A stretch of DNA of 64,000 nucleotides from assembly GCA_002224055.1 (NCBI GenBank), contig AZLU01000021.1, positions 1 to 64,000 of the forward strand. Reading direction: 5' to 3'. Position numbers and translations under genes: made by a program. This DNA is from Pezizomycotina sp. ARF18 (taxonomy: Eukaryota > Ascomycota). Numbering within the stretch: the stretch's first letter is position 1; each line of letters begins with the position of its first letter. Below are positions 31,875 through 34,990 of this stretch, in pieces. Under the pieces are notes generated by a model that was given only the letters and a program-made list of their open reading frames with translations, was not told the DNA's origin and searched no databases.

Positions 31875-34800
31875 TTATTCCTCCGCCTCAACGACCTTAA
31901 TAATAGCAGTAATACCCTTCCACCTCAAACTATTCTTCGGTAACACACGTAACTCGCCGTTCCTCAGCGCCCACTTCTCCCTGAACTCGCTCTTCTCCAC
32001 CAGCTTCAGCGCCGACGCGATAGCTTTATACGAGTGCGTCAGCAGCTTCGTCTTGACACCACTCAGATTATATCCCGGAGTAAGCGTGTTCGTCGCTCCA
32101 GTGCCGAAGGTAACCTTCTTAATACCGATGCGGCGGCGGCGCGGAGGACGTGCATGATGATCATCTCGATGGTACCGTTGGGAGCTCCGGGGAAATCCAG
32201 CGCGAACTTGAACTGGTACCCATTCTGCGGCGCGAGCTGAGCGAGGACTGCTAGGCGCAGATCTTTCCGTTCTTGTCGCGGGCGTACCAGTACCGCCTGT
32301 GCTCCTTGTCCGCCCACGACGAACTTGGGTCAAGTGAGCCTGTCGGCCCTTGCGTGGCAAGCCAGTGCCTGATGCGCTCGTCGCACTCGACGATGACGTC
32401 GCTGGGGATGTACTCGCCTCCTTCGCCGGGCGTGGCGGGCGGATCTCCGTGATGGTAACCCTTCCTTCTCGGCGTGGCGGATCTTGCGCTGGATGTTCTG
32501 GTCGTGCTGCGCGGGATTCTCCATCGTGTCGACGCGCTCCTCGCTGGCGCAGGTTAGGGTACTCCAACCGAGCGTCTTACCGAGGATCTTCTGCACCTCC
32601 TCGCTGCAGAGCATCCAGACGGGCTTCAGCTTGGCGTGCTTGCGGAGGTGGCGGACGTAAGTGACGATAACCTTAGCCTTTTGGGATTCGTCGCAGAGGG
32701 GGTCGCCGATGGTTACGGCGTATCCTTCCGAGGGGACGTATCCGACAGCGGCACCGGTGTCTTCGTCCCGCCAGACGACGAAGCGGTCGTCTAACCAGGA
32801 AGTGTTTCCGGCGTCTCCGTAGTTTGCGATGAGCTTCTCGAGCGGCTGGAGCGTCCGGGGGTCGTCTGGGTTGGCAACCCACGGCGGGATCATGGTGGAC
32901 GCTTCGGGTGCCTGAGGGCGTGAGCGGGGCTGGCTGCTTAGGCAAGCTCTTCGGATCTCGGGGGAAAAGAGACGCCAGGCGGATGTTTCCGAGGTCGAGG
33001 AGGAGCATGACGACACGCTCGAGACCGACACCGCCGCCGGCGTGAGGAGGACAGCCCCACCTGAACCCGTCGATGTACTCTTTCATCGTGTCCGGGTTCA
33101 GACCGAGATCATGTATGTTCTTCTCCAACATCTTAGCGTCGTGGATACGCTGGCCACCGCTGAGCACCTCCTGTCCGCGGATGAAGATATCGTACGAGTT
33201 GGTAGTGAGCTTCTTGGGGTCCTCCGGTTAGGCATGGTGTAGAACGGACGGGCGCCGCGGGGAACTTGTCGAGGATGTAAAAGTCGTTTTGTACTTCTCC
33301 TTGACCAGCTCGCCGAGCCTGATCTCAGCGCGGGTGCTGAGGTCTTCAAGCTCGCTGGGTGGCTCGGACATGCCTTCGTCCTTGTACCCGAATCCCGGAG
33401 CATCTTGATACCTTCTTTGAAGGGATACGGGGGGTCTCATCTAACCATACCAGCTTCTCGACGGGGAAGGATCTAGATACGGCTCGACTTCCCTACCGTA
33501 CTTCTCGTAGATACCCTTGAAGACAGCCTTGAACATGCCGTCGATAACGTCTAGGGCTTCTGGTAGTTCTCCTCGTGGCCATCTCGAGATCTAAACCGGT
33601 GTACTCTGTCAGGTGGCGCTTGGTGTTACTGTTCTCCGCGCGGAAGACGGGGCCGACTTCGTACACACGCTCGAGGTCGGCAGCGATTGCCATCTGCTTA
33701 GCGAGCTGCGGGACTGTGCAAGGAATGCAGGCCGGCCAAAGTAGTTTAGCTGGAAGACGCTGGACCACTCTCGGTTGCAGCTCCCTGTAGCTTGGGGTAT
33801 GTATCTCGATGAAACCCTGAGAGTCTAGGTAAGCACGGAACAGATTGGTAATCGCAGAGTTGATCCGGAGATTGCATTGGACGCGGACGTGCGGAGGTCC
33901 AAGACACGCTTGTCCAATCTGGTACCGGTAGAGATGGTGTTCTTGGTATCGAGGTGTCCACCCCGGAGGTTTTCGGCTTCGTAGACGTCGAATGGGAGGT
34001 GTTCTGTTACCGAGGCGAGCACGTGGAGCTCTGTTATCTGGATCTCGACGTCGTGGACGGTCGTCGCTTTGACCACCTCCTTGGGTTTCCGCACACGGCC
34101 TTTGACGAGAACCACCGACTCCGGTGCTAGGTGCCCAGCCCAGAAAAGCATGTGCTTGGATGGTCGACTCTCGGATGTACCGGATGTCGGTGTGGGTCCA
34201 CTGATGACTGATCTCGCTCGCCATTGGTCGGCTCATTTTCTGCCTGCTTTTCGACGTGGAGCACACCTTGCACCGTCGTTATCTGCTGCGGAAAATGAAG
34301 AAGACCAGCTTGCTACCCATGGTCCGTCTGGCGTGAACCCTAGCCCTGAAAGATATCTCTTCCCCTTCGTTTTCTGCGCTTAATCCGGAAATGTCCATCC
34401 TCTTCACTCCCAGCTTATCTGATTCGGCCGAGGTATGTACCGGACGGACACCGTACCTCCGCCTAACTTCCTCCGGATCGTTTCTTCTCCGCTTCCTTCT
34501 CCATCTCCGCGAACGTCTTCTCCTGTCCGATTCCCTCTTATCCGCGAGCTTCTTGCTCAGCTCCTTACCCTTCTCCCTCAAAAACTTCCTGTGCTGGTTC
34601 TTGCTCATGGGCAGACCCGAATCGTTCAGCGGTCTATCCAGCGAGGAAGAAGCAGATCCGGTGCATGCGGTGTGGGACTTGTGGCTGCGTAACCCCAAGC
34701 CGCGCGGGAGTGGTGGGAATTCGTAGGCGAAGGGGACGTCGTGGATGTGTGTGTGGGTGAAGACGAGCCGGACCTCCTCGACCAGAACGACGAACGCTGG

Positions 34801-34990
34801 CTCGAGGTCGGCGTCGCCCTCGTGTTGTGAGTATTATTAGGGATGGGAACGTGAGGGAGTACCGCTTGTCTTTCGTGGCCGTGGTGTCCTTCGGTGACGT
34901 CGACCTGGCTGATCTCCTTGTCCTCCCGTGAAATTCGTCGTCCGAGGACTCACCACCCCTGATGCGTTCGAATGCTTTTTTAAGAGACAT
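31875..34990 (-). CDS. erdS: Ergosteryl-3beta-O-L-aspartate synthase: AspRS fused to a DUF2156 transferase
   Basis: Bifunctional enzyme. The AspRS part charges tRNA-Asp and the DUF2156 (MprF-like GNAT) part moves aspartate from the tRNA to ergosterol. It starts MSLKKAFERIRGGESSDDEF, with about 110 polar residues, then the basic helix SKNQHRKFLREKGKELSKKL. The OB fold comes next (DPEEVRRRYGVRPV; KGRVRKPKEVVKATTVHDVE; HVLASVTEHLPFDVYEAENL). In the class II core, motif 2 is VGPVFRAENSNTKRHLTEYT near 33.64 kb, then RPFYTMP, RWGCPPHAGGGVGLERVVML (motif 3) and LGNIRLASLFPRDPKSLP near 33.0 kb. The transferase domain runs about 32.9-31.9 kb: LEKLIANYGDAGNTSWLDDR, VGYVPSEGYAVTIGDPLCDE, LKPVWMLCSEEVQKILGKTL, QRKIRHAEKEG and NTLTPGYNLSGVKTKLLTHS. 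TAA at 31875-31877. The housekeeping AspRS would be a separate gene elsewhere. Many frame changes, no clear intron. Confidence 0.92.

What the first reader, a model, noticed from the sequence alone, without database searches (positions are those of the whole stretch)
31875..34990. AspRS-DUF2156 fusion: sterol aspartylation enzyme ErdS
A class II aspartyl-tRNA synthetase with motif 2 (FRAENSNT) and motif 3 (GLERVVML) is followed in the same gene by an MprF-type tRNA-dependent transferase domain. This fusion is established in fungi as ergosteryl-3beta-O-L-aspartate synthase. The N-terminal ~110 residues, polar and Ser/Thr-rich, look specific to this lineage. The catalytic residues of both halves seem present once frame errors are discounted.
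Basis: partly seen in the sequence, partly recalled or inferred. Interest (0 to 1): 0.7.

Follow-up and report, generated by a model that had tools for sequence, protein, structure and literature searches.

The report
Fungal ergosterol-aspartate synthase gene (ErdS)
This is a fungal gene for a known two-part enzyme that loads aspartate onto its tRNA and then most likely moves it to the membrane sterol ergosterol; it looks like an ordinary member of that family, read here in pieces because the genome draft seems full of small sequencing errors.

Summary
On the minus strand, window 34990-31875 encodes an aspartyl-tRNA synthetase followed without a gap by an MprF-type (DUF2156) transferase domain. 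Eight open pieces in three frames line up in order within residues 45-944 of a 947-residue PDB chain (9w9f, named there only 'Aspartate--tRNA ligase, cytoplasmic') that spans both halves. Seven of the eight match it or its sister entries best; the OB-fold piece is closest to 1eov (yeast AspRS). The AspRS and transferase alignments lie 4 bases apart. The frame breaks most likely belong to the assembly: the longest open stretch in the 64 kb is 261 aa, five other 10-kb samples reach 131-245 aa, and the genome's separate canonical AspRS is split too. So this fungus has both a free-standing AspRS and the fusion; no second DUF2156 place was found. One correction: roughly half of the 'lineage-specific' N-terminal stretch aligns, weakly, with the PDB chain. 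Verdict: an ordinary new member of a family described in 2020; low interest.

The parts
31875..34990 (-). whole ErdS-type gene (AspRS-DUF2156 fusion), frame-broken in this assembly
34282..34833 (-). piece with N-terminal extension and start of the anticodon-binding domain; residues 63-184 align with 9w9f 45-166
   Evidence: E 1.8e-09
33828..34232 (-). OB-fold (anticodon-binding) piece; 9w9f 182-289, best PDB match 1eov (yeast AspRS)
   Evidence: E 9.7e-15 (1eov), 2.1e-13 (9w9f); Pfam OB-fold below cut-off
33496..34278 (-). AspRS catalytic piece with motif 2; 9w9f 279-382
   Evidence: PF00152 E 2.3e-20; E 1.3e-27
33231..33440 (-). AspRS piece between motif 2 and motif 3; 9w9f 445-480
   Evidence: E 3.8e-05
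32676..33227 (-). AspRS C-terminal piece with motif 3; 9w9f 499-598
   Evidence: PF00152 E 7.5e-25; E 2.4e-43
32333..33082 (-). DUF2156 / LPG_synthase_C piece; 9w9f 600-759
   Evidence: PF09924 E 8.5e-08; E 4.2e-48
32254..32553 (-). DUF2156 piece; 9w9f 765-822
   Evidence: E 1e-08
31878..32576 (-). C-terminal DUF2156 piece to the stop; 9w9f 862-944
   Evidence: E 1.5e-14

Best explanation
The gene is an orthologue of fungal ErdS, ergosteryl-3beta-O-L-aspartate synthase. The N-terminal AspRS half binds tRNA-Asp, activates aspartate with ATP and charges the tRNA (inferred from the class II domain and motifs 2 and 3). The C-terminal DUF2156 (MprF-type) half then takes the aspartyl group from Asp-tRNA and esterifies it to the 3beta-OH of ergosterol (inferred from the family). 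A separate free-standing AspRS elsewhere in the genome presumably serves protein synthesis, so the fusion is probably a dedicated lipid-modifying enzyme (inferred). The many frame breaks are most likely errors of the assembly, not decay of the gene.
For: Domain pair in order. Eight collinear pieces to one PDB chain, seven of eight with it or its sister entries as best match; 317 of 616 aligned residues identical over six of the eight pieces, 71 of 100 in the motif 3 piece (the OB-fold piece and the 37-residue stretch were not counted). AspRS and transferase alignments abut, 32922/32917. GC3 is 0.66-0.82 in the six pieces measured, and gene GC is 0.58 against 0.40 and 0.43 in the 5-kb flanks: coding-like, no sign of AT-directed decay. 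Single copy: four of the eight pieces were searched in the own genome and each finds only itself at 100%, with 0 to 2 weak further hits. Separate AspRS on C10, with canonical AspRS entries ranked above the fusion chains. Longest open stretch 261 aa in the whole window and 131-245 aa in five 10-kb samples elsewhere. ErdS function: review passages.
Against: No intact reading frame exists in the data, so a recent pseudogene cannot be fully excluded. One synthetase gene of the same genome, L001, has an unbroken 455-aa frame, so breakage is uneven. The OB-fold piece matches yeast AspRS slightly better than the fusion chain. The PDB chain is named only as an aspartate-tRNA ligase and its paper was not found in the library; that it is ErdS is my inference from its two halves and length. 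No lipid or expression data.
Confidence: 0.9

Rival explanations
1. It is a decayed ErdS pseudogene: the frame breaks are real and the enzyme is no longer made.
For: Eight pieces in three frames within 3.1 kb; L001 in the same genome is unbroken over 455 aa.
Against: Open stretches are short window-wide (the longest, 261 aa, lies in this gene) and in five sampled 10-kb stretches. The P450 gene near 25437-26186 (PF00067 in one piece; further pieces in other frames by my reading) and the free-standing AspRS (introns may explain some of its breaks) are split too. Residues stay conserved, 71 of 100 in one piece, and GC3 stays high.
Confidence: 0.05
2. The fusion acts on another acceptor than ergosterol (another sterol or a glycerolipid), with Asp as donor.
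For: MprF-family enzymes accept varied lipids in bacteria and a sterol in fungi (passages of PMC10580965); the acceptor cannot be read from sequence.
Against: The transferase half is 45-55% identical to the PDB fusion chain in its three pieces; the review reports Erg-Asp as the product of this architecture.
Confidence: 0.05
3. Two adjacent separate genes (an AspRS and a DUF2156 protein) that only look fused in a noisy assembly.
For: The frame changes near the domain border.
Against: AspRS and transferase alignments are 4 bases apart and collinear with one PDB chain; no room for a gene border.
Confidence: 0.01

Closest known systems
ErdS, ergosteryl-3beta-O-L-aspartate synthase of fungi such as Aspergillus fumigatus (Yakobov et al. 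2020, not read; seen through passages of PMC9437257, PMC10449517 and PMC11619415)
   Same: AspRS followed by DUF2156; pieces collinear within residues 45-944 of the solved 947-residue chain 9w9f, taken here to be an ErdS
   Different: About half of the aligned residues identical (317 of 616); residues before 63 of the N-terminal piece unmatched; frame-broken in this assembly
ErgS, ergosteryl-3beta-O-glycine synthase (passages of PMC10449517)
   Same: fungal transferase that puts an amino acid from tRNA on ergosterol
   Different: ErgS uses Gly-tRNA and an independent glycyl-tRNA synthetase; here an AspRS is fused. No second PF09924 place was found in this noisy genome
LysX of mycobacteria and corynebacteria (passages of PMC10580965)
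   Same: one protein joining a class II synthetase and an MprF-type transferase
   Different: LysRS domain, at the C-terminal end; acceptor a glycerolipid

Membership tests
ErdS | class II AspRS half of eukaryotic cytosolic type | tested here: met
   PF00152 in two pieces; PDB matches rank the fusion chains and cytosolic AspRS first
ErdS | C-terminal DUF2156 / LPG_synthase_C half | tested here: met
   PF09924 32 bits over cut-off 27.5 in one piece; three pieces matched within 9w9f 600-944. That PF09924 is the former DUF2156 is recalled
ErdS | both halves in one polypeptide | tested here: met
   alignments abut at 32922/32917; by adjacency, not by one open frame
ErdS | closest to a known fusion rather than to canonical AspRS | tested here: met
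   seven of eight pieces best to 9w9e/f/g; OB-fold piece slightly better to 1eov. That 9w9e/f/g is ErdS is inferred
ErdS | makes ergosteryl-aspartate from Asp-tRNA | not testable with these tools
   needs lipid analysis
ErdS | partner hydrolase ErdH in the genome (ErdH recalled, from no call) | not tested
   no sequence of ErdH was at hand
ErgS | transferase without a fused synthetase half | tested here: not met
   AspRS half present
LysX | LysRS half at the C-terminal end | tested here: not met
   synthetase half is AspRS and N-terminal

The most novel reading that the evidence does not exclude
This fungus keeps ErdS as its only DUF2156 enzyme beside a canonical AspRS, with an N-terminal stretch unlike the solved enzyme's, so the fusion may be targeted or regulated in a lineage-specific way.
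Probability: 0.15. Interest if true: 0.2.

Novelty: new member of a known kind. Interest (0 to 1): 0.12.

Why it matters
It adds one more fungus to those that can probably aminoacylate ergosterol through tRNA, and shows that here the fusion coexists with a separate AspRS. It changes no idea about the family, whose function and apparently structure are already known.

Tried and rejected
Ideas rejected: pseudogene (similar breakage across the window, in five samples and in the canonical AspRS); separate genes; sole cytosolic AspRS. The last looked possible after the motif 3 piece gave only a weak second hit (C10, 38% identity, E 0.0016) and the motif 2 piece none there, but the DNA of C10 around 396600-398550 reads as a canonical AspRS in many frames. 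Of six of its pieces scanned, one passes the PF00152 cut-off, one matches below it, one has only sub-threshold hits to other families and three have none; the one piece compared with PDB sequences puts canonical AspRS entries first and the fusion chains ninth to eleventh, and it finds only itself in the genome. A second DUF2156 enzyme: one weak place on C20 (E 0.16, four stops inside) reads like an AMP-binding acyl-CoA synthetase (my reading of the translation, no family scan) and was dropped.

Led nowhere: rRNA search to place the fungus (not completed); Rfam and tRNA scans of the window, 0 hits; a search for papers naming 9W9E/F/G, 0 found; the primary ErdS and ErgS papers are not held. In the Umbilicaria paper both places with 'sterol aspartylation' are in the reference list; the follow-up look failed on a bad search word. 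The species was not identified. The Pfam hit Dsh_C on the N-terminal piece (19 bits, cut-off 22.3) was taken as low-complexity noise. No structure was predicted.

Full report
What is there. The finding spans 31875-34990 on the minus strand. The gene starts at an ATG at 34990 and ends with the stop codon 31877-31875; that this ATG is the true start was not tested. No single frame is open through it. Ten pieces were scanned with Pfam: tRNA-synt_2 (PF00152) in two, LPG_synthase_C (PF09924, the former DUF2156, recalled) in one, a sub-threshold OB-fold hit in one, a sub-threshold hit taken as noise (Dsh_C) in one, nothing in five. Eight of the ten were compared with PDB sequences; the other two (33444-33590 and 32066-32329) were not. 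All eight match the 947-residue chain 9w9f, in order, within its residues 45-944; five stretches between the pieces (between residues 166 and 182, 382 and 445, 480 and 499, 759 and 765, 822 and 862) are not covered. 9w9f or a sister entry (9w9e, 9w9g) is the best match for seven of eight; for the OB-fold piece 1eov, recalled as yeast AspRS, is slightly ahead (E 9.7e-15 against 2.1e-13). The PDB table names the chain only 'Aspartate--tRNA ligase, cytoplasmic'; since it carries both halves, I take it to be an ErdS. Identity counted on six of the eight pieces is 317 of 616, from 39 of 120 in the N-terminal piece to 71 of 100 in the motif 3 piece.

Is it one gene? The AspRS alignment ends at 32922 and the transferase alignment begins at 32917, at PDB residues 598 and 600. 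There is no room for a gene border. A frame change falls at this place in the assembly, as at several others.

Is it decayed? Probably not. The longest stop-to-stop stretch in all 64 kb is 261 aa, itself in this gene. Five 10-kb samples from five contigs, one of them the window's own, give maxima of 131 to 245 aa. The P450 gene near 25437-26186 is split over frames (one piece by Pfam; the others by my reading). The genome's free-standing AspRS is also split, though introns may explain part of that. Against this, one synthetase (L001, by my reading a LysRS) is open over 455 aa, so the error load is uneven. In six ErdS pieces measured GC3 is 0.66-0.82; gene GC is 0.58 against 0.40 and 0.43 in the 5-kb flanks.

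The rest of the genome. The assembly has 46.4 Mb in 408 contigs. PF00152 gives 12 match rows there, two of them in this gene; the tool says its counts are lower bounds. By reading translations I assign the others to a LysRS (C3), a mitochondrial-type AspRS (C6), a mitochondrial-type LysRS (C287), an AsnRS (C59), a probable mitochondrial AsnRS (C342) and a canonical cytosolic AspRS (C10). Only the C10 one was compared with PDB sequences, by one piece: 6iy6, 4j15, 1eov and 1asy (recalled as human and yeast AspRS) rank first and the fusion chains ninth to eleventh of 22. PF09924 gives one place only, this gene, at E up to 1. Since the assembly is noisy, the absence of an ErgS-like gene is weak evidence.

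Function. A review states that ErdS charges tRNA-Asp and transfers aspartate to ergosterol (passages of PMC9437257); another paper that ErgS is the glycine counterpart (passages of PMC10449517); another that fungal members of the MprF family use a sterol acceptor (passages of PMC10580965). The primary papers are not held. Shown here: domain content, order, adjacency, match to the solved chain, motif 2 and 3 text, single copy for four pieces searched, separate AspRS. Inferred: charging of tRNA-Asp, transfer to ergosterol, expression.

Architecture, coordinates and the ErdS call are right. 'Catalytic residues of both halves' is borne out for motifs 2 and 3 of the AspRS half; for the transferase half I saw only overall conservation with the PDB chain, and no catalytic residue was tested by name. 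The N-terminal stretch is not wholly peculiar: piece residues 63-184 align with the PDB chain (E 1.8e-09), though most of that score comes from the AspRS part (9w9e, which lacks most of the extension, still scores 27.5 bits against 41.2). The residues before it have no match in the PDB, and no fungal protein collection was available to say more.

Verdict. An ordinary member of a described enzyme family, in a draft fungal genome. Of 44 open stretches of at least 140 aa outside this gene, 20 were scanned with Pfam; six had a match (ABC protein, SLAC1-type transporter, P450, a Vps62 hit below cut-off, NmrA-like, fungal rhodopsin domain) and none of these points to sterol aminoacylation.

Noticed in passing
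whole window; L020-L024: Open frames are short throughout the sampled assembly, as if broken by small indels, so a 'frameshifted' or 'missing' gene in this genome needs caution.
   Followed up: yes
L011 1236-3140 (G000:C10 about 396600-398550): Free-standing canonical cytosolic AspRS, split over many frames, beside the fusion in the same genome.
   Followed up: partly
25437-26186 +: Cytochrome P450 (PF00067 in one piece) with frame changes in its C-terminal part by my reading.
   Followed up: no
52868-53443 +: Fungal rhodopsin domain (PF20684); recalled as typical of filamentous ascomycetes.
   Followed up: no
40790-42353 -: Translations look like a TrkH-type potassium transporter (my reading, not scanned).
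   Followed up: no
20651-21250 -: Translations look like an FAD-linked oxidase (my reading, these pieces not scanned).
   Followed up: no
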